Positions 4,746 to 13,318 of a DNA stretch of 13,607 nt are shown here, one piece after another. A program made the translations under genes and the position numbers. This DNA comes from Ferruginibacter sp. (GTDB lineage: Bacteria; Bacteroidota; Bacteroidia; Chitinophagales; Chitinophagaceae). Position 1 is the first letter of the stretch. Every line of letters begins with the position of its first letter. The stretch covers positions 1 through 13,607 of the forward strand of contig JANXOQ010000392.1 of the NCBI GenBank assembly GCA_025357775.1, in the 5' to 3' direction. The notes beneath the pieces were generated by a model. The model did no database searches and had not been told where the DNA came from. It worked only from the letters and a program-made list of their open reading frames with translations.

Positions 4746-6575
4746 CTACATTTCAAAATCCCACACAGATTTATATAATCCATGATCTTCTACATATACT
4801 AAAAACGCATCATAAAATTTATCTGCCGCTATGGTAGCACTATCGCCTATTACAAATAGTTTTTCTTTAGCCCTTGTAATAGCCACATTCATTCTTCTAT
4901 AATCTTTCAAAAATCCTATATCCCCATCATCATTACTGCGTACAAGCGATAAAATAATTATTTCTTTTTCTTGCCCCTGAAAACTATCAATGGTGCTTAT
5001 ACGCAAGTTTACAGGAAGTAATTCTTTAGCAGCAGATACTTGGCCTGCGTATGGAGAAATAAAAGCACTAAGTGACGAATCAATTTTTTCTGTCTCCAAT
5101 AACTTTAAAACAACTTGCAATTCTCCCTCGTTTTGTAAACTATTACCATCTTTTCCTCTTTCTTCGTTATAGCCAGAGCCTGCTGTATCTATAAAATAAA
5201 TATGTTTGCCATTATTGCTTAGGTGGGTTGCAGTTTGCAAAAGTCCTTCATAAAAATAATTACTACTAAACCCTGCAATTGCAGCTCTCATTCTGTATTG
5301 TGTATTCAACAAAAAAACATTGCAAATCTTCTCAATACAAATTTCTAAAATAGATTTATTAAACCCAAGTTGCATGGCTTCATTGCTTAAAACTGTAGGG
5401 GGCAATTGTAAATGATCACCGGCCAATACAATCTTATCAGCCAAAGGAAAAATGCACCAAGCCAAAGGCTCTATACATTGCCCAGCCTCATCTATTACCA
5501 AGCTTTGAAAACCAATGTTTTTTATTTTAGCATCACAAAGTGCTATTGGTGTGCCCAATATTACATCTGCCTCCGCAAATAATTTTTCTTCATTGTACTG
5601 CTGTAGTTTTTTTATTTCTATTCTAATATTTTTTACTTCGCTAAATAATAAATTTCGCTGTTCTCTTTCTGCTTTGCCAAAATTTCGCTTGTATTTAAGC
5701 GCCATTTTTCTAAATTCCTCAGCTCTTATTTTTAAAACTTTTATTTCTTTTTGCTCACTACTATTCGCCATCCTACCTTCAGGAGTATGTGCAAAAATTT
5801 GTTCATCTACCTTACTCATATTTCCTACACGCAATACTTTAACTCCTCGCAGTATTAAACCTTTTGCAATATTATCTATAGCAGTATTACTTGGTGCAGC
5901 CACTAATACTTTTTCATCATTTTTTATAAGTTGAATGATGGCTTCAATAAGTGTGGTTGTTTTTCCTGTACCTGGGGGCCCATGCACAATTACAATATCC
6001 GTATTTTGTACTATTGCTTTTACTGCTTGTTGTTGGCTTTCATTTAAAAATTTATTTTTAAATGAAAGTATTATTTCGTCTTGTTCAATTTTACTTTGTG
6101 CTTTTTTCTCTGTTGCATGCAATTTCTCAAACAACGAAAACATTTCTTTTTTGTGTTGCAAATTTTGCACTGCAGTTTTCATAAGCAAAGTTGTACGCTG
6201 GTCTGGTGCTAATTTTATGCCTACGCCATTCTCTTCTATCCAATCAGGAAAATCAGGTGCAAATAATCTAAACGCACCCGCTTTCCCATCTTGATTAATA
6301 AGCACGCCTTTTATAGGGGCTTCTCCAGTAATAAAACATTCTATTGCGGCACCATCTTTAAATTGATTATGTTCTACAGCAAAGTTTAACCTAAAACTTA
6401 TTTCAGGATAATCTGCATAGCCAAAACTTTTTTTGGTAACAGTAATAGGATGTAATGCAAGCCCCTCGGCTTTCAACGATTTTAAACTATGTTGTTCATC
6501 TAGCTGATACCTTTTTATTTGTTCTTTTTCTTCTAAGTTTATACAACTTATAAGTGTAGATATATGTGGGTGCAT
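4746..6575 (-). CDS. Superfamily 1 (Upf1/IGHMBP2-like) DNA/RNA helicase
   Basis: About 609 residues from ATG at 6575. The helicase motifs run in order: Walker A GPPGTGKTT (~199-206), motif Ia APSNTAIDN (~227-235), a charged helical insert (~270-330) like the 1B stalk, Walker B with VIDEAGQ (~362-366), motif III GDHLQLPPT (~386), motif IV QYRM (~426-429), motif V STIDSFQGQEKE (~527) and motif VI RRMNVAITRAK (~560-570). DEAGQ plus QYRM places it in the Upf1-like SF1B group, ATP-dependent 5'-3' helicases; the bacterial members have no settled role. The frame extends upstream to GTG at 6620, but that lies inside the terminator of the previous gene, so ATG 6575 (MHPHISTLISCINLEE) is preferred. It follows the small secreted protein on the same strand, so transcription may depend on read-through. 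Confidence 0.92.
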   Translation of the reverse strand: MHPHISTLISCINLEEKEQIKRYQLDEQHSLKSLKAEGLALHPITVTKKSFGYADYPEISFRLNFAVEHNQFKDGAAIECFITGEAPIKGVLINQDGKAGAFRLFAPDFPDWIEENGVGIKLAPDQRTTLLMKTAVQNLQHKKEMFSLFEKLHATEKKAQSKIEQDEIILSFKNKFLNESQQQAVKAIVQNTDIVIVHGPPGTGKTTTLIEAIIQLIKNDEKVLVAAPSNTAIDNIAKGLILRGVKVLRVGNMSKVDEQIFAHTPEGRMANSSEQKEIKVLKIRAEEFRKMALKYKRNFGKAEREQRNLLFSEVKNIRIEIKKLQQYNEEKLFAEADVILGTPIALCDAKIKNIGFQSLVIDEAGQCIEPLAWCIFPLADKIVLAGDHLQLPPTVLSNEAMQLGFNKSILEICIEKICNVFLLNTQYRMRAAIAGFSSNYFYEGLLQTATHLSNNGKHIYFIDTAGSGYNEERGKDGNSLQNEGELQVVLKLLETEKIDSSLSAFISPYAGQVSAAKELLPVNLRISTIDSFQGQEKEIIILSLVRSNDDGDIGFLKDYRRMNVAITRAKEKLFVIGDSATIAADKFYDAFLVYVEDHGLYKSVWDFEM

Positions 6576-6582
6576 GTATACA

Positions 6583-6625
6583 TAAATAAAAAAGTGTGAA
6601 AAGAATAAATTTCCCCTCACACTTT
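6583..6625 (-). terminator. Rho-independent terminator after the small secreted protein gene
   Basis: A perfect 9-bp stem (AAAGTGTGA at 6591-6599, TCACACTTT at 6617-6625) with a 17-nt loop is followed, reading the minus strand, by six T residues. It starts 20 bp after the stop of the 6645-7010 gene and ends 8 bp before the helicase ATG at 6575. Confidence 0.75.
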
Positions 6626-6644
6626 ATAAATAATTTAATCTCAT

Positions 6645-7010
6645 TTATTTTGTTATCACTTCTAGTTGGGAAGTGTTATAAATAACAATTTGCGGTTTCT
6701 CTTTGTGTAAAACAACTTTACCACTTACACAAATGTTTTTATCTTTCAATTCTATCTCAGGCAAATAGCCCATTTTTATTCTTACATCGTTGTATAAAAC
6801 AATGGTTATTGGACTAGCGGGGTAAGCAGCACCCATATTTAAAAGAGTAGGTGCCCCATTAGATGTTTCAAAAAAATGACCACCAAATATTTTACCACAA
6901 ATCTTTATACTATCGCCTATATGTTTGGCTGCATCTTCTGGTGTAAGTACCTGTGCATAATTGTTTTTAACAAAAAGTAAAACAAATGCTAATAGTAATA
7001 TTTTTTTCAT
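6645..7010 (-). CDS. Small secreted OB-fold-like protein
   Basis: 121 residues with a clear signal peptide, MKKILLLAFVLLFVKNNYA, cut before Q20, giving a mature protein of ~100 residues. The mature part reads as a five-stranded barrel: SIKICGKIFGGHFFET, APTLLNMGAAYPASPITIVLYN, NICVSGKVVLHKEKPQIVIYN. The 'I-V-GKV....KPQIVI....L' ending is typical of OB-fold domains such as those in secreted nucleic-acid-binding proteins of Bacteroidota. There are two cysteines and no visible catalytic motif. It is transcribed toward the helicase and away from nrdB. Substrate unknown; the fold assignment is inference from pattern. Confidence 0.75.
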   Translation of the reverse strand: MKKILLLAFVLLFVKNNYAQVLTPEDAAKHIGDSIKICGKIFGGHFFETSNGAPTLLNMGAAYPASPITIVLYNDVRIKMGYLPEIELKDKNICVSGKVVLHKEKPQIVIYNTSQLEVITK

Positions 7011-7102
7011 AATAATGTTTTAGTAAAAATAAACATATTGGCTAAATATTCATAAAAATTTTTCCATAAAAATAGACAAAATTAACAGGTTGCTTTTTTT
7101 GC

Positions 7103-7127
7103 ATAAATCAATACCCTATTGATTTAT
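7103..7127. repeat. Perfect 11-bp inverted repeat with 3-nt loop
   Basis: ATAAATCAATA, CCC, TATTGATTTAT form a perfect palindrome 310 bp upstream of nrdB and about 20 bp upstream of the minus-strand -7 candidate for the small secreted gene. No T tract follows on either strand, which argues against a terminator and for an operator or other protein-binding site. A second GGGTATT at 7171-7177 could pair with the same AATACCC. Confidence 0.6.
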
Positions 7128-7195
7128 AACAAATAATATTTTTTAAATACAATAGTAATAAATTGTCAAAGGGTATTTGTTCATAAAATACAAAA

Positions 7196-7235
7196 AAGTT
7201 ATCCATATTATGTGCATTATGTACGTGGAAAACTT
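7196..7235. promoter_or_regulatory. Imperfect palindrome with DnaA-box-like arms upstream of nrdB
   Basis: AAGTTATCCA (7196-7205) and TGGAAAACTT (7226-7235) are inverted with one mismatch. The left arm contains TTATCCATA (one mismatch from the DnaA box TTATCCACA) and the right arm contains the complement of TTTTCCACG (two mismatches). Between them ATTATGT is directly repeated with a 9-bp period (7207-7213, 7216-7222). The site lies ~200 bp upstream of nrdB. Binding by DnaA is inference. Confidence 0.35.
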
Positions 7236-7436
7236 ATTAAAATGCTACATGCTTTGCTCCCATTGCATTCAGCTTGTTTGTAAACATGCTGTGAAAAACT
7301 AATGTATTTTTTTATATAAAATGATTAGTAATATTGTTATCAAATAGTACAAAAACCATTTTTTGAGGATGTGAGATAATCGAGGCGAAACCCACAAGTA
7401 CTTTTTGCAAACATAACATTTCTTAAAATTATATAC

Positions 7437-8405
7437 ATGAATATCGAACCGCTTTTGGCTGATAACAGCGACCGCTTTGTACTTTTCCCAATAAAGCACC
7501 AAGATATTTGGCAGATGTACAAACAAGCGGAAGCAAGTTTTTGGACAGCCGAAGAATTAGACCTTACTACCGATGTGCAAGATTGGGCCAATAAGCTAAA
7601 TGACGATGAACGTTATTTTATAAAACATGTGTTAGCATTTTTTGCGGCAAGCGATGGAATCGTAAATGAAAACCTTGCAGTAAACTTTTTAAAAGAAGTA
7701 CAATACCCAGAGGCCCGTTGTATGTATGGCTTTCAGGTAATGATTGAAAATATACACAGTGAAGCATATTCACTGTTGATAGATACATATATAAAAGATG
7801 TAGTAGAAAAAGATAGATTATTAAGAGCAATTGATACCATTGAATGTGTACAGAAAAAAGCAGAGTGGGCGCTTCGTTGGATAGATAAGGGTTCTTTTGC
7901 TGAAAGATTAATTGCATTTGCTGCTGTGGAAGGAATATTTTTCTCTGGTTCTTTCTGCTCCATTTTTTGGTTGAAAAAAAGAGGCTTAATGCCAGGGCTT
8001 GCTTTTGCAAATGAATTGATAAGTAGAGATGAAGGATTACATTGCGATTTTGCATGTATGCTTTACACACAACACCTAGAAAACCCATTACCAAAAGAAA
8101 CAGTTACACAAATTATAAGAGACGCCGTAGAAATAGAAAAAGAATTTGTAACAAGTGCATTGCCTGTTGGCTTGATAGGTATGAACTCAAAATTGATGTG
8201 CGATTATATAGAGTTTGTAGCAGATCGTTTATTGGTTGCATTAGGTTGTAGCAAAATATATAATGCCATTAATCCATTCGATTTTATGGAATTAATTTCA
8301 TTGCAAGGCAAAACAAATTTCTTTGAAAAGCGTGTAGGAGAATATCAAAAGAGTGGTGTGAAAGAAAATGCAAGTAAGGCGTTTAGTATGGATGAGGATT
8401 TTTAG
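7437..8405 (+). CDS. nrdB: Class Ia ribonucleoside-diphosphate reductase, beta (R2) subunit
   Basis: 322 residues, the usual length for a compact R2. It carries the di-iron centre and tyrosyl radical that start reduction of ribonucleoside diphosphates by the NrdA partner. Visible ligands: D42 (WTAEELD), E104 and H107 (ENIHSEAY), E165 ([10 protein letters not shown]), E199 and H202 (RDEGLHCDF); the radical tyrosine is Y111. The C-terminal tail FSMDEDF fits the R1-binding tail. The sequence is strikingly like the eukaryotic R2 type ([27 protein letters not shown]), which is common in Bacteroidota. No NrdI-like partner or altered ligand is seen. The gene precedes nrdA on the same strand but is separated from it by 632 bp holding a four-helix-bundle gene. 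Confidence 0.97.
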
Positions 8406-8492: not shown

Positions 8493-8849
8493 ATGCATAA
8501 ATACAAAGATTTAAAAGTTTGGCAGAAAGCTGTTCAACTAACAAAATTGATTTATGAGCTAACAAGTGTTTTCCCTACAGAAGAAAAATTTGGATTGACA
8601 AATCAAATAAGAAGAGCAAGTGTTTCTATTCCCTCAAACATTGCAGAAGGAGCAGGCAGAAATAGCGATAAAGAATTTGTTCAATTTATTGCAATAGCAA
8701 CAGGCTCTTGTTACGAAGTAGAGACTCAATTAATAATTGCAATAGAATTAAAATATTTAGAAAGTGCCGATAATGTTTTTAAGCTGATTGAAGAAATTCA
8801 AAAAATGCTTTTTACATTCTCAAATAAATTAAAAACAAATATTAAATAA
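8493..8849 (+). CDS. Four-helix-bundle protein of the 23S rRNA intervening-sequence (S23/IVP) family
   Basis: 118 residues covering the whole family. Recognisable features in order: KDLKVWQKAVQLTKLIYEL (helix 1), FPTEEKFGLTNQIRRASVSI (turn and start of helix 2), PSNIAEGAGRNSDKEFVQFI (the family signature), then CYEVETQLIIAIELKYL and a final helix rich in Lys and Phe. The family was first found inside 23S rRNA intervening sequences, forms pentamers, and shares its fold with Avd of diversity-generating retroelements; its biochemical job is unsettled. No reverse transcriptase or template/variable repeat is present here. AATACTCAAA (8479-8488) just before the start recurs just before the nrdA start (9019-9028). 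It is bracketed by inverted repeats, suggesting it entered the nrd locus as a unit. Confidence 0.9.
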   Translation: MHKYKDLKVWQKAVQLTKLIYELTSVFPTEEKFGLTNQIRRASVSIPSNIAEGAGRNSDKEFVQFIAIATGSCYEVETQLIIAIELKYLESADNVFKLIEEIQKMLFTFSNKLKTNIK

Positions 8850-9037: not shown

Positions 9038-11392
9038 ATGCAAGTTATAAAGCGCAATGGCAAAAAAGAATCAGTACATTTTGATAAAGTAACATCAAGG
9101 GTTACAAGATTAAGTTATGGATTACAATTAAAATCGGAAGATATTATTGAAATATCTAAAAAAGTTATTTCAGGTATTTTTAACAATGTAACCACTACAG
9201 AGTTAGATAACCTAGCTGCAGAAACCGCTGCATCGTTTACTACAAAGCATCCTGATTTTGCAGTATTGGCTGCAAGAATAGCGGTGAGCAATTTGCATAA
9301 AAACACTAAAAAATTGTTTAGTGAAACAGCAGAAATAATGTATCACTACATTGACCCTAAAACAAATTCAGCTGCACCATTATTAGCAGATGATATTTAT
9401 GAACTAATAAAAGATAATGCAGACGTATTGGATGCGGCTATAATTTATGAGAGAGATTATCATTTTGATTTTTTTGGTTTTAAAACATTGGAAAAATCTT
9501 ACTTGCTAAAAGTAAATGGAAATATAGTAGAGCGGCCACAACACATGTTTATGCGTGTAGCACTAGGTATACACAAAACAGATGTAGATGCTGCTATTGA
9601 AACCTATAATTTAATGAGCGAAAAATGGTTCATTCATGCTACACCAACATTGTTTAATGCAGGTACACCAAAGCCACAAATGAGTAGTTGCTTTTTATTA
9701 AGCATGAAAGATGATAGCATAAATGGTATATACGATACATTAAAAGATTGTGCATTAATTTCTCAAAGTGCTGGTGGCATAGGGTTAAACATTCATAACG
9801 TTCGCAGTACGGGTAGTTATATAAAAGGTACCAATGGCACTAGCAATGGTATTGTACCAATGCTTAGAGTATTTAATGATACCGCTCGTTATGTAGACCA
9901 AGGTGGTGGAAAAAGAAAAGGAGCATTTTCTGTATATTTAGAGCCATGGCATGCAGATGTATTTGAGTTTTTAGAATTAAGAAAAAACCATGGCAAAGAA
10001 GAAATGCGTGCTAGAGATTTATTTTTAGCATTGTGGATTCCAGATTTATTTATGAAACGTGTAGAAGCTGATGCGGAGTGGAGTTTATTTTGCCCTAACG
10101 AAGCAAAAAACCTACACACTACACATGGTGCGGAGTTTGAAGCATTGTACACACAATATGAGCTAGAAGGAAAAGCTAAGAAAACAATACAAGCAAGAGA
10201 TTTGTGGAATGCGGTATTAGAATCGCAAATAGAAACTGGTACACCTTATGTATTGTATAAAGATGCAGCTAATACAAAGAGTAACCAACAAAACCTTGGT
10301 ACTATTCGTTGTAGCAATTTGTGTACAGAAATTATAGAATACAGCGATGAAAACGAAACAGCTGTTTGTAATTTGGCTTCGCTTTCTTTACCAAGGTTTG
10401 TAGAAGGCAAGAAATTTAATTTTGAAAAATTAATAGAAGTTACAAAAATTGTAACCCGTAATTTGAATAAAGTTATTGATGGTAATTACTACCCAATACC
10501 TGAAACAGAGCGTAGCAATACACGCCACCGACCTGTAGGGATAGGTGTACAAGGCTTGGCTGATGTATTTATGATGATGGGCTTGCCTTTTGAAAGTGAA
10601 ATGGCTAAGCTATTAAATGTAAATATTTTTGAAACCATCTATTTTGCAGCTATGACAGCAAGTTGTGAATTGGCTAAAAAAGATGGCGCTTACCAAACAT
10701 TTAAAGGCTCTCCATTAAGCCAAGGCAAGTTTCAGTTTGATTTGTGGAATGTAGCACCAACTGGTCGCTACGACTGGGCTGCACTAAGAGCAGACGTAAT
10801 GGAGCATGGTGTAAGAAATTCTTTATTGCTTGCGCCAATGCCTACCGCTTCTACTTCACAAATATTGGGCAACAACGAATGTTTTGAACCATATACATCT
10901 AATATTTACAACCGTAGAGTATTAAGTGGAGAGTTTGCAGTAGTAAACAAGCATTTATTAAAAGACCTTGGTGCTCTAAACTTGTGGAACGATAATATGA
11001 AACAACGCATTATTGCTGCCAATGGTTCTGTGCAAAATATAGAAGAGATACCTGCTGATTTAAAAGAGATTTACAAAACAGTATGGGAGATAAAACAAAA
11101 AACGGTGATTGATATGAGTGCCGATAGAGGCGCATACATTTGTCAATCTCAATCATTAAACTTATTTGTAGAGCAGCCAAACTTTGGTAAGCTTTCATCT
11201 ATGCATTTTTATACTTGGAAAAAAGGATTAAAAACCGGCATGTATTACTTGCGTACAAAAGCTGCAGCAGACGCTATTAAATTTACTGTAGATGCAGATG
11301 TATTAAATAAAACAAAAGATGATGCAGATGCGCTAGCACAAATTACTTGCTCATTAGATAATCCTGAAGGATGTGAAGCTTGTGGTTCATAA
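9038..11392 (+). CDS. nrdA: Class Ia ribonucleoside-diphosphate reductase, alpha (R1) subunit
   Basis: 784 residues. The N-terminal ~90 residues are an ATP-cone ([20 protein letters not shown]), so allosteric control by ATP/dATP is expected. The redox pair is C218 (PQMSSCFL) and C444 (AVCNLASL); the thiyl radical residue is C429 within NLCTEI (N427, C429, E431). The radical-transfer tyrosines are Y736-Y737 (KTGMYYLRT), and the shuttle pair is C779/C782 in the tail CEACGS. Residue numbers coincide with those of mammalian R1 for C218, C429 and C444, consistent with the eukaryote-like branch common in Bacteroidota. Partner NrdB lies upstream on the same strand. The leader consists of repeat copy B, so whether nrdA shares the nrdB transcript is uncertain. 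No terminator is visible after the stop; a cassette-like element begins 9 bp further on. Confidence 0.97.
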
Positions 11393-11466
11393 AAATTGAT
11401 GTTAGGCACAATGCAACGACGAAACTTCAAAATCGAACATTTAGACAAATAGACCAAAAATATTTG

Positions 11467-11474
11467 TAATTTTG
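11467..11474 (+). promoter_or_regulatory. -7 element for the nuclease gene
   Basis: TAATTTTG matches the Bacteroidota TAnnTTTG consensus exactly, 16 nt before the ATG at 11491. The -33 TTG is missing at the standard spacing. The distance to the ATG is nearly the same as for the antitoxin promoter downstream. Confidence 0.5.
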
Positions 11475-11490
11475 CCTTTTTGAAAATTAT

Positions 11491-12342
11491 ATGGCAAACG
11501 ACAGAATGAAAGCAAAATATCTAAACCCATTTACAGACTTCGGATTTAAGAAAATCTTTGGAGAAGAAGCAAGTAAGCCTTTGCTTATTGACTTCTTGAA
11601 TGCTTTATTGCCTCAAACTGACAAAATTGTTGAGTTAACATTTAAAAACAACGAACAACTTGGACAAACCGACCTCGATAGAAAAGCTATTTATGACATT
11701 TATTGTGAAAACGAAAAGGGTGAAAAATTTATAGTAGAATTACAGAAAGCAAAACAAAACTATTTCAAAGAAAGGACTATTTACTACTCAACGTTTCCAA
11801 TTAGTGAACAAGCCGAAAAAGGAGAATGGAATTACAATTTAAAAGCAGTTTATTGTATTGGAATATTAGATTTTACTTTTGACGACTACGAAACAGAACC
11901 TGAAAAAAGCGAAGTTGTTCACACAATAAAACTTAAAAACCAAAACGGAAAAACGTTTTACGACAAACTGACTTTCATCTACCTTGAAATGCCCAATTTC
12001 AAACAGATAGAAAATAAACTTGAAACAAGGTTAGATAAATGGTTGTATTTCATAAAACATTTGGAAGACTTTCAAACAATTCCATCTATATTTTCAGACG
12101 AAGTTTTTAGTCAAGCTTTTGAGAAAGCAGAACTTGCAAAATTTGGACAAACCGAATTAGCAAATTATGAAAACAGTTTGAAAATTTACAGGGACTTGAA
12201 AGGTGTAATTGATACAGCTTTTGACGAAGGTAAACTTGAAAGAAGTATTGAAATGGCTAAGTTTATGAAGTTAGAAAACGAACCTATTGAAAAAATTAGT
12301 AAATATACAGGCTTGACCAAAGAAGAAATCGAAAAACTCTAA
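11491..12342 (+). CDS. Rpn/PDDEXK-family recombination-promoting nuclease or putative transposase
   Basis: 283 residues, the usual length. The start MANDRMKAKYLNPFTDFGFK has the family's 'P-TD-GFKK-FG' opening. The nuclease core is YDIYCENEKGEKFIVELQ, with likely catalytic D69, E83 and Q85 (E-x-Q in place of E-x-K, as is common in this family). The later YLEMPNF and LDKWLYFIKHLEDF segments and the C-terminal DEGKLERSIEMAKFMK...ISKYTGLTKEEIEKL are also family hallmarks. Rpn proteins are DNA nucleases linked to RecA-independent recombination and, in some cases, phage defence; which applies here is unknown. The gene is alone in the candidate cassette, is followed 12 bp later by an attC-like site, and lies on the same strand as nrdA. 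Confidence 0.85.
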   Translation: MANDRMKAKYLNPFTDFGFKKIFGEEASKPLLIDFLNALLPQTDKIVELTFKNNEQLGQTDLDRKAIYDIYCENEKGEKFIVELQKAKQNYFKERTIYYSTFPISEQAEKGEWNYNLKAVYCIGILDFTFDDYETEPEKSEVVHTIKLKNQNGKTFYDKLTFIYLEMPNFKQIENKLETRLDKWLYFIKHLEDFQTIPSIFSDEVFSQAFEKAELAKFGQTELANYENSLKIYRDLKGVIDTAFDEGKLERSIEMAKFMKLENEPIEKISKYTGLTKEEIEKL

Positions 12343-12354
12343 ACTCAACTACAC

Positions 12355-12551
12355 TGTGCCTAACATTGGGTTTGGCGTTATTGGGGCTTGACGTTGTTAA
12401 CTTCGGCTGTAGTTCAATATCAGCTTCAGTTCCAGCTTGACGTTTTTCAATTTAGCTTTTAGTTGTTATCTTCAACTTTAGTTTTTCAATTAGGCTTTAG
12501 TTCTGGGCGGACGTTATTCAAATCCCCCAACAACGCCAAGCCCTATCCGTT
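12355..12551 (+). other. attC-like recombination site (large imperfect palindrome)
   Basis: In order: TGTGCCTAAC (12355-12364, containing an R''-type GCCTAAC = RYYYAAC), spacer ATT, a 19-bp left stem (12368-12386), a ~138-nt centre, the right stem (12525-12543), spacer TATCC, and G/TT at 12549-12551. The 19-bp stem has 17 Watson-Crick pairs, one G-T and one A-C mismatch. Unequal, non-pairing spacers between R and L boxes are typical of attC. In the circular form R'' would pair perfectly over 10 bp with the cassette's own GTTAGGCACA. The total length is longer than most described attC sites. Confidence 0.5.
12442..12502 (+). repeat. Direct repeat in the loop of the attC-like site
   Basis: GTTTTTCAATTTAGCTTTTAGTT (12442-12464) recurs as a 22-nt version at 12481-12502 with one base lost and one or two changes, period 39 bp. 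The whole loop is made of similar AGCTT/AGTT/TTCAA phrases, suggesting growth by slippage. Confidence 0.6.
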
Positions 12552-12643
12552 GTATGCCATACGTTTGCAAAATTTCGAAAGAAAAAAATAGCAGTATTTA
12601 AGCATTTATGTTTTGTGTAATGCGACCGCAACTCATAAAAAAC

Positions 12644-12673
12644 TTGAACTTTTAAACATTTTTTGTAAATTTG
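12644..12673 (+). promoter_or_regulatory. Bacteroidota-type promoter of the toxin-antitoxin operon
   Basis: TTG (12644-12646), a 19-bp spacer, then TAAATTTG (12666-12673): an exact fit to TTG-N19-TAnnTTTG. The transcript should start near 12680, giving a leader of only about ten bases. This rules out the in-frame TTG at 12671 as translation start and supports ATG 12689. Confidence 0.7.
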
Positions 12674-12688
12674 ATCAAGCACCAAAAT

Positions 12689-12919
12689 ATGCGGACATTA
12701 AATGTATCTATATCAGATATTGAGTATAACAAGTTCGGTTTGAAAGAGGAAAAATTGACTTTTACAGATTTTATTGACCTAGTTAGTAAAGAATTGACAC
12801 GTCAAAATCTTAGCAGGTGTTTAGAACTTGCAGACAAATACAGCATTTCCAAAATGACAATAGATGAAATTACGAACGAAGTAAAAGCGGTAAGAAGAAA
12901 TGCAAAAAATCGTAATTGA
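12689..12919 (+). CDS. Antitoxin of a VapBC-like (PIN) toxin-antitoxin pair
   Basis: 76 residues from ATG 12689 (MRTLNVSISDIEYNKFGLKE); the frame could extend to TTG 12671, but that base is within the promoter. The N-terminal half has a beta strand followed by helices, and the C-terminal half (LELADKYSISKMTIDEITNEVKAV) ends in a basic tail, a pattern common to small antitoxins paired with PIN_3 toxins in Bacteroidota. Its last 20 bp overlap the toxin start at 12900, the usual translational coupling. It should bind the toxin and repress the operon. Identification rests mainly on size, order and overlap. Confidence 0.7.
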   Translation: MRTLNVSISDIEYNKFGLKEEKLTFTDFIDLVSKELTRQNLSRCLELADKYSISKMTIDEITNEVKAVRRNAKNRN

Positions 12920-13318
12920 TACCAATGTAATTGTTTCCTCTCTTATTCAACGAGGTTATCCAAATCAAATTATTAAAGACCTTTTTATTGAACAAAAATT
13001 TCAACTTTGTGTTTCAGACGAATTATTGGCTGAATACTATGAAGTTTTAGCAAGACCTAAATTTTATAAATTCCAAGATTTTTTTTTCGAGCCGAAGCTT
13101 TACTTGTTGAGATAGAAGCTAAATCGAAAAAGTATTATCTGACCATAACGCTTGACCTTATTTCAGATGACGATGATAATATGATTTTGGAACTTGCAGA
13201 CGAATGTTTGGCGGACTTTGTTATTACAGGTAACACAACAGACTTTATTTTCACAACCTACAAGTAGACTAAAATCGTAACACCTAAAGAATATTGGGAT
13301 AATTACCAACCAGACTAA
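12900..13318 (+). pseudogene. PIN-domain (VapC-like) toxin, frameshifted at a T9 run and with an internal TAG
   Basis: The first frame (12900-13115) encodes MQKIVIDTNVIVSSLIQRGY with the PIN Asp of IDTN, then LLAEYYEVLARPKF, and runs into VRSR-like nonsense after T9 at 13079-13087. The -1 frame downstream continues the family exactly: RAEALLVEIEAKSKKYYLT, LISDDDDNMILELADE, FVITGNTTDF. It meets TAG at 13265 and then goes on TKIVTPKEYWDNYQ to TAA at 13316. Intact members (~135-140 residues) have these parts in one frame. Either the gene is dead by two lesions, or -1 slippage on T-TTT-TTT yields a ~121-residue protein still holding all acidic residues. PIN toxins are Mg-dependent RNases. An intact antitoxin with a broken toxin is a common decay state. 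A sequencing error in the T9 run is possible. Confidence 0.8.

What the first reader, a model, noticed from the sequence alone, without database searches (positions are those of the whole stretch)
11399..12551. Integrase-less integron-like cassette with a nuclease gene, parked behind nrdA
ATGTTAGGCACA (11399-11410) and TGTGCCTAACAT (12355-12366) are exact inverted repeats around a single gene. GTTAGGC fits GTTRRRY and GCCTAAC fits RYYYAAC, the two conserved simple sites of integron attC recombination. Between GCCTAAC and G/TT lies a 19-bp stem with non-pairing spacers on each side, as in folded attC. A cassette-encoded end that complements its own R'' is hard to explain otherwise. Integrons in Bacteroidota are little described, and a lone cassette next to a core gene without an attI suggests insertion at a secondary site.
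Basis: partly seen in the sequence, partly recalled or inferred. Interest (0 to 1): 0.82.

Follow-up and report, generated by a model that had tools for sequence, protein, structure and literature searches.

The report
Integron-like gene cassette behind nrdA
The nuclease gene behind nrdA sits in what looks like a movable gene cassette of an integron-like gene-capture system, whose likely recombinase lacks the part thought essential in integrons.

Summary
The window carries a 1,148-bp cassette: G|TTAGGCACA (11401), an Rpn-type nuclease gene, and a 190-nt attC-like site ending at GTT (12549-12551). I collected 63 distinct such sites in the genome and its genus. Their 19-bp stems covary, and two positions are fixed and not Watson-Crick. 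In arrays each cassette's first bases complement its own last site (5.9 of 7 on average, 3.6 when shuffled). Beside a site in the window's own genome, and just upstream of a long array in a relative, lies a tyrosine recombinase followed by an attI-like GTT; several assemblies break there. That recombinase lacks the IntI insertion (I2/patch III); none of 59 genus genomes has an over-threshold IntI, and the core is GTTRNNNG, not GTTRRRY. Recombinase-attI-cassette chains were also found in 5 of 13 other Bacteroidota loci tested. A diverged second copy of the window cassette is homologous only between the predicted crossover points. Mobility and single-strand recombination are inferred, not shown. 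New variant of integron; eight literature searches found no description.

The parts
9038..11392 (+). nrdA (ribonucleotide reductase large chain), the gene behind which the cassette lies
   Evidence: Pfam PF02867, PF00317, PF03477
11401..11410 (+). cassette start, core G|TTAGGCACA (crossover between 11401 and 11402, inferred)
   Evidence: exact reverse complement of 12355-12364; same GTTAGGCACAATGC starts the second copy on C91
11491..12342 (+). cassette gene: Rpn family / PDDEXK_2 nuclease, 283 aa
   Evidence: PF12784 247.7 bits (cut-off 27.4), TIGR01784 104.8 bits (cut-off 52.1)
12355..12364 (+). R''-like box TGTGCCTAAC of the attC-like site
   Evidence: complements the cassette's own start
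12368..12386 (+). L''-like stem arm, 19 nt
   Evidence: pairs with 12525-12543; covariation in 63 sites
12387..12524 (+). 138-nt loop (variable terminal structure)
12525..12543 (+). L'-like stem arm, 19 nt
12549..12558 (+). R'-like core G|TTGTATGCC: end of this cassette, probably start of a second one
   Evidence: GTTGTATGCC is also the core at the end of an element of the G016 array
12671..13318 (+). probable second cassette cargo: small ORF (antitoxin-like by position) and a PIN-domain toxin whose frame is broken near 13080
   Evidence: PF13470, TIGR00305 on 12900-13115; no closing site found before the contig end

Best explanation
A single gene cassette (11402-12549) of an integron-like capture system of Bacteroidota. 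Its attC-like site (12355-12558) folds from single-stranded DNA into a 19-bp hairpin; a tyrosine recombinase encoded elsewhere in the genome (contig C265) cuts at G|TT. The cassette circularises, bringing its first bases against its own R'' box, and inserts at the attI-like site beside the recombinase gene or, as here behind nrdA, at a secondary GTT site. Shown by sequence: boundaries, stem covariation, per-cassette core complementarity, arrays, recombinase plus attI-like site at array starts, a diverged second copy with the same boundaries. Inferred: that this recombinase acts on these sites, that the substrate is the folded single strand, and that this cassette moved that way. The recombinase lacks the IntI-specific insertion, so the system works like an integron but does not meet the IntI definition.
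For: Cassette start/end cores match 5.875 of 7 over 32 adjacent pairs, shuffled 3.62, sd 0.21, maximum 4.53 of 20,000. Stem: 85.6% Watson-Crick at nine variable positions in 51 distinct arm pairs, shuffled 43.3%, maximum 55.3%; 10.08 of 12 without right-arm preselection, shuffled 7.69. Pattern: 87 matches (my count) in 24 of 59 genomes, 10 for the reversed control. Recombinase and site on one contig in G000, G003, G008, G016, G018, G031. attI-like motif after the stop in 9 of 25 matches by eye, contig end within 700 nt of the 3' end in 10 of 25 against 1 of 25 at the 5' end. C91 copy: homology from GTTAGGCACAATGC to CGTT, flanks unrelated. 27 of 28 cassette ORFs on one strand. Foldseek top hit is integron integrase 2a3v, E 6.5e-16. 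Catalytic-looking R, H, R, H, Y invariant in 13 proteins.
Against: No recombination was observed. Five of the 32 adjacent pairs match at only 2-4 of 7. Recombinase and sites do not co-occur cleanly: sites without a detected recombinase in G010, G013, G029, G035, recombinase without the pattern in G004, G009, G017, G028, G030, G032, G033. 8 of 13 other loci gave no chain, among them complete genomes, and the stringent test on 80 loci separated little from controls: 7 downstream, 4 on its reverse strand, 2 and 1 upstream. The IntI insertion, held essential for cassette recombination (PMC8138268, PMC7790495, passages), is missing. The site before the window cassette does not resemble attI (rank 35 of 496). 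Two Rpn homologues in G030 show no such site in the 330 nt printed after them.
Confidence: 0.82

Rival explanations
1. A classical integron cassette (lone attC, CALIN type) moved in trans by a canonical IntI that is present in other cells or was missed in the assembly.
For: The window's own cores GTTAGGC and GCCTAAC fit the classical consensus; the genome is 93% complete in 525 contigs; CALINs are common in draft genomes (PMC9024848, passages).
Against: 0 of 59 genus genomes have a TIGR02249 match over the cut-off; family cores fit GTTRRRY in 9 of 63 and RYYYAAC in 5 of 63; arrays start next to the insertion-less recombinase.
Confidence: 0.1
2. The recombinase is a Xer-like enzyme acting on double-stranded sites (as with dif-like modules); the hairpin is incidental.
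For: The recombinase has Xer-like length and no IntI insertion; XerA is its best sequence match and a top structural match.
Against: The stem is under selection for pairing; the site is a long hairpin with single crossover-like GTT ends; the genus recombinases lie apart from chromosomal XerC/D in the tree.
Confidence: 0.12
3. A nuclease-driven transposable element or MITE: the inverted repeats are transposon ends moved by the Rpn 'transposase'.
For: PF12784 is named a transposase family; several Rpn genes lie in this genome.
Against: The repeat differs from cassette to cassette but matches within each; other cassettes carry unrelated genes; one end holds a 190-nt hairpin, the other only the core.
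Confidence: 0.03

Closest known systems
Integrons (IntI, attI, attC; sedentary chromosomal integrons, CALINs)
   Same: One-gene cassettes in one orientation, hairpin site behind each gene, G|TT core, cassette start complementary to its own R'', attI-like site next to a tyrosine recombinase gene, large arrays, lone cassettes.
   Different: Recombinase lacks the IntI insertion and scores under the IntI cut-off; core GTTRNNNG; no bulged base in the 19-bp stem but two fixed non-Watson-Crick positions; recombinase mostly points towards the array (G018 is the exception seen); extra N-terminal domain.
XerC/XerD and archaeal XerA recombinases
   Same: Similar core length and fold.
   Different: N-terminal domain, placement beside cassette arrays and attI-like sites, separate place in the tree.
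Rpn / PDDEXK_2 (PF12784) nucleases
   Same: The cassette gene is a clear member.
   Different: Here it looks like passive cargo; other cassettes carry unrelated genes.
CTX-phage-type Xer-exploiting elements (from PMC4792948 and PMC7790495 passages)
   Same: A hairpin single-stranded substrate used by a recombinase without I2.
   Different: No own recombinase and no cassette arrays there; here a dedicated recombinase, attI-like site and arrays.

Membership tests
Integron (IntI type) | Integrase with the additional domain around patch III (I2) | tested here: not met
   2a3v residues 203-247 face 4 residues of the query; K box to H.LRH 64-67 aa in 22 of 25 genus proteins (3 not measurable) against 106 in four IntI-type loci
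Integron (IntI type) | Integrase over the TIGR02249 cut-off (265 bits) | tested here: not met
   170.8 and 161.5 bits for the G000 and G016 proteins; 0 of 59 genus genomes
Integron (IntI type) | Cores RYYYAAC / GTTRRRY | tested here: not met
   5 and 9 of 63 sites; the window's own R'' and cassette start do fit
Integron (IntI type) | Hairpin site: R'', spacer, L'', loop, L', spacer, R' | tested here: met
Integron (IntI type) | Extrahelical bases on the folded strand | tested here: inconclusive
   no bulge in the ungapped 19-bp stem; two fixed non-Watson-Crick positions instead; the loop was not examined
Integron (IntI type) | Cassette start complements the cassette's own R'' | tested here: met
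   10 of 10 in the window
Integron (IntI type) | Tandem cassettes in one orientation | tested here: met
   C66 and G016:C13; ORFs 27 of 28 on one strand
Integron (IntI type) | attI next to the integrase gene, first cassette joined to it | tested here: met
   motif in 9 of 25 matches by eye; first-cassette core matches in G000 (7 of 7), G016 and G018 (6 of 7); not clear in the rest
Integron (IntI type) | Recombination of attI x attC through the folded bottom strand | not testable with these tools
   needs a bench assay
Rpn / PDDEXK_2 nuclease (cassette gene) | Score over the Pfam and NCBIfam cut-offs | tested here: met

The most novel reading that the evidence does not exclude
A second kind of integron, spread across Bacteroidota, that captures folded single-stranded gene cassettes without the I2 domain: two fixed mismatch positions of the stem set strand polarity and the recombinase's N-terminal domain does the job of I2. 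It would be an independent origin, or a surviving pre-I2 form, of the integron.
Probability: 0.4. Interest if true: 0.93.

Novelty: new variant of a known kind. Interest (0 to 1): 0.86.

Why it matters
Work on integron evolution holds that gaining the I2 helix let a Xer-like enzyme use single-stranded hairpins, that I2 is known from no other protein, and that intermediates are lacking (PMC4792948 and PMC7790495, passages seen). Here arrays with attI-like sites go with enzymes that lack I2, so the need for I2 becomes directly testable in cultured bacteria. If confirmed, integron-type gene capture would be much commoner in Bacteroidota than reported: reviews list the phylum among those with integrons (PMC8618304, passage), but IntegronFinder 2 names one complete integron there, in Salinibacter ruber (PMC9024848, passages). 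Searches that require the IntI insertion or the classical core would miss it.

Tried and rejected
Rfam at gathering thresholds: no match in the window. Plasmid collection with the element: no match. Idea that lone cassettes enter attI-like sequences: the window site ranks 35 of 496 GTTs (7%); of five lone sites only the G014 one scored high (0.2%); rejected for the window. G031's downstream flank has only a 65% match in G000 on C87, so the ancestral junction stays unknown. The closing site of the second cassette was not found. N-terminal domain: no Pfam match; the VIA-align rows cover mainly residues 106-387, so its fold is untested. A first claim that G008's first site pairs with its attI was dropped: one search shows a better partner downstream. 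The Salegentibacter array (L243) lies beside a recombinase on another branch and is not counted. The 80-locus chain test separated little from its controls (7 against 4, 2 and 1 loci); the attI-anchored test used 13 loci that I picked from the 93 matching genomes. The 63 sites were preselected by arm motifs and a stem score (2 of 67 regex pairs lost to the stem filter); the right-arm-free test used 60 of 65 left-arm hits (5 lacked sequence). Literature: the listings show no description of such a system; no preprints and few subscription papers are held, and the search was swamped by general Bacteroidota papers.

Full report
OBSERVATION. The gene is an Rpn-type PD-(D/E)XK nuclease. The geometry is that of an integron cassette: G|TTAGGCACA (11401), gene, TGTGCCTAAC (12355-12364), 3-nt spacer, 19-nt arm (12368-12386), 138-nt loop, 19-nt arm (12525-12543), 5-nt spacer, G|TT (12549-12551). 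Both strands fold better than shuffles (z -2.36 and -2.85).

RELATED SITES. Blastn of the element against the own genome gave 14 places at E<=1, the query included. Contig C66, read in full, is an array. The pattern AACANNGGGTTTN11GGC occurs in 24 of 59 relatives: 87 matches by my count, 17 in G000 and 21 in G016, against 10 for the same pattern read backwards (at most 2 in a genome), so some genomes with a single match may be chance. A scanner found 51 elements in fetched loci, 49 after two duplicate loci were removed; all but two of the 49 are 184-192 nt from AAC to GTT. In G016, contig C13 holds 25 of them, all on the minus strand, over about 56 kb, with a stretch of about 28 kb inside that has few detected sites.

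CASSETTE LOGIC. In an integron the first bases of a cassette match its own last site, while cores may differ between cassettes. This holds: over 32 adjacent pairs (36 found; 4 with gaps of 2,600 nt or more dropped) the seven bases after GTT match at 5.875 of 7 on average, against 3.62 (sd 0.21, maximum 4.53) in 20,000 shuffles. Five of the 32 match at only 2-4 of 7 and may mark missed sites or fused cassettes. Of cassettes with a core match of 5 or more and a length limit, 29 were bounded on both sides; the median from GTT to GTT is 899 bp (667-2,444), and 27 of 28 longest ORFs lie on the cassette strand. Of 28 cargo proteins few have a Pfam match, each family in one protein: several DUFs, Rpn, an IS110 transposase, DUF3368, TPR.

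STEM. In 63 sites of the genus, preselected by arm motifs and a stem score, the 19-bp stem is kept while its sequence changes. At nine variable positions 85.6% of cells in 51 distinct arm pairs are Watson-Crick, against 43.3% (sd 3.0, maximum 55.3) in 5,000 shuffles. Without right-arm preselection the best complement scores 10.08 of 12 in 60 sites (65 found, 5 without enough sequence) against 7.69 (maximum 8.13 in 200 shuffles); 40 of 60 reach 10 or more, against at most 14 when shuffled. Two positions are fixed and not Watson-Crick: T-G at pair 4 (56 of 63) and A/C at pair 13 (54 of 63). On the other strand these read A/C and T-G. They may set strand polarity, as extrahelical bases do in attC (inference). 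The core is GTTRNNNG: fourth base R in 63 of 63, eighth base G in 60 of 63. GTTRRRY fits 9 and RYYYAAC 5 of 63.

RECOMBINASE AND ATTI. The best TIGR02249 hit in G000 is a 507-aa open frame on C265, about 0.9 kb upstream of a half site at the contig end. Its homologue in G016 (C13:63115-64356, minus) lies just upstream of the first array element. At E<=1e-40 homologues occur in 22 of 38 genomes searched, all in the window's genus; only two of the 38 were from outside it. Recombinase and site share a contig in G000, G003, G008, G016, G018 and G031; G031's match has two stops inside. Sites without a detected recombinase (G010, G013, G029, G035) and recombinases without the pattern (G004, G009, G017, G028, G030, G032, G033) also occur. 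About 130-320 nt after the stop codon, 9 of the 25 matches show by eye a motif CGTATA..TT before a GTT; a matrix of 11 sites, two of them not behind a recombinase stop, has the consensus TTTCGTATATTTATGA|GTT. The rest differ, lack it, or the contig ends first. The core at this GTT matches the R'' of the next site in G000 (7 of 7), G016 and G018 (6 of 7); in G018 the recombinase points away from the array. The contig ends within 700 nt of the recombinase's 3' end in 10 of 25 matches, against 1 of 25 at the 5' end; G022's 471-kb contig ends at the attI GTT itself, and in another genome of the phylum G236:C170 ends one base after such a GTT. This fits a population with different first cassettes (inference).

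WIDER DISTRIBUTION. The genome-contig scan kept the best 80 of 585 loci, many from Bacteroidota. Sites of 121-125 nt lie on the same loci in Flavobacterium enshiense, Flavobacterium sp. BFFFF1, F. odoriferum, Chitinophaga, Cyclobacterium, Pontibacter and Bacteroidetes B1. Rufibacter has seven sites of 58-61 nt, and attI-like GTTs follow the recombinase stop in several loci, by eye. A stringent chain test on the 80 loci was weak: 7 downstream, 4 on its reverse strand, 2 and 1 upstream. With profile A1 at E<=1e-60, 93 of 296 genomes across the phylum have a match; not all need be array-linked. Of 13 loci I picked from these, 5 showed a chain from an attI-like GTT (lengths 4, 3, 2, 1, 1) and 8 none; 1 of 130 shuffled runs gave a chain of 1.

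THE WINDOW CASSETTE. A second copy in the same genome (C91, protein 85% identical) aligns with it from GTTAGGCACAATGC to the closing CGTT; the flanks do not align, and the hairpin part is diverged. G031, whose nrdA protein is 91% identical, shows no cassette behind nrdA, nor do seven further relatives (by eye). Among 59 relatives only 4, the own genome included, have an Rpn homologue of this protein at E<=0.001; the two close ones in G030 show no such site in the 330 nt printed behind them, so the gene also lives outside cassettes. The flank before the window cassette does not resemble attI beyond chance, so a secondary GTT site is likely. GTTGTATGCC at 12549 also closes an element of the G016 array, so the PIN toxin pair downstream is probably a second cassette whose closing site lies beyond the contig end.

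KNOWN OR NEW. IntegronFinder 2 names one complete integron in Bacteroidetes, in Salinibacter ruber (PMC9024848, passages); a review lists Bacteroidota among phyla with integrons (PMC8618304, passage). The archaeal integron paper treats the additional domain as a defining trait of IntI (PMC9668308, passages). A survey of tyrosine recombinases says that the insertion is not fully conserved in its integron-like subgroup but essential for integron function (PMC8138268, passages). Work on IntI evolution sees the gain of I2 as the key step and notes missing intermediates (PMC4792948, PMC7790495, passages). No paper in the listings describes an I2-less integron-like system. I file this as a new variant: by anatomy it works like an integron, but its recombinase fails the defining test.

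Noticed in passing
window 12900-13318: The PIN-domain toxin frame ends early at 13115 and seems to go on in another frame after a run of T near 13080: a frameshift or an assembly error.
   Followed up: no
window 8493-8849: A 23S rRNA-intervening-sequence protein gene (PF05635) lies between nrdB and nrdA.
   Followed up: no
L043 (G000:C66), read as reverse complement, 1-330: A run of about 23-nt units like ACGGCTTAGACTTTATCGAAACG lies at the end of the array contig (by eye).
   Followed up: no
L050 (G000:C91) 5152-7896: Two more Rpn-like genes lie on the other strand around the second cassette copy.
   Followed up: partly
L044 (G000:C265) 981-2504: The 507-aa recombinase frame seems to hold the N-terminal tryptophan-containing motif twice, where most relatives have it once (by eye).
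   Followed up: no
L255 (candidate division KSB1): A related recombinase, an attI-like GTT and a 130-nt site with a fully matching core lie outside Bacteroidota.
   Followed up: partly
L243 (Salegentibacter flavus): An array of about 122-nt sites with matching cores lies near a tyrosine recombinase of another branch of the tree.
   Followed up: no
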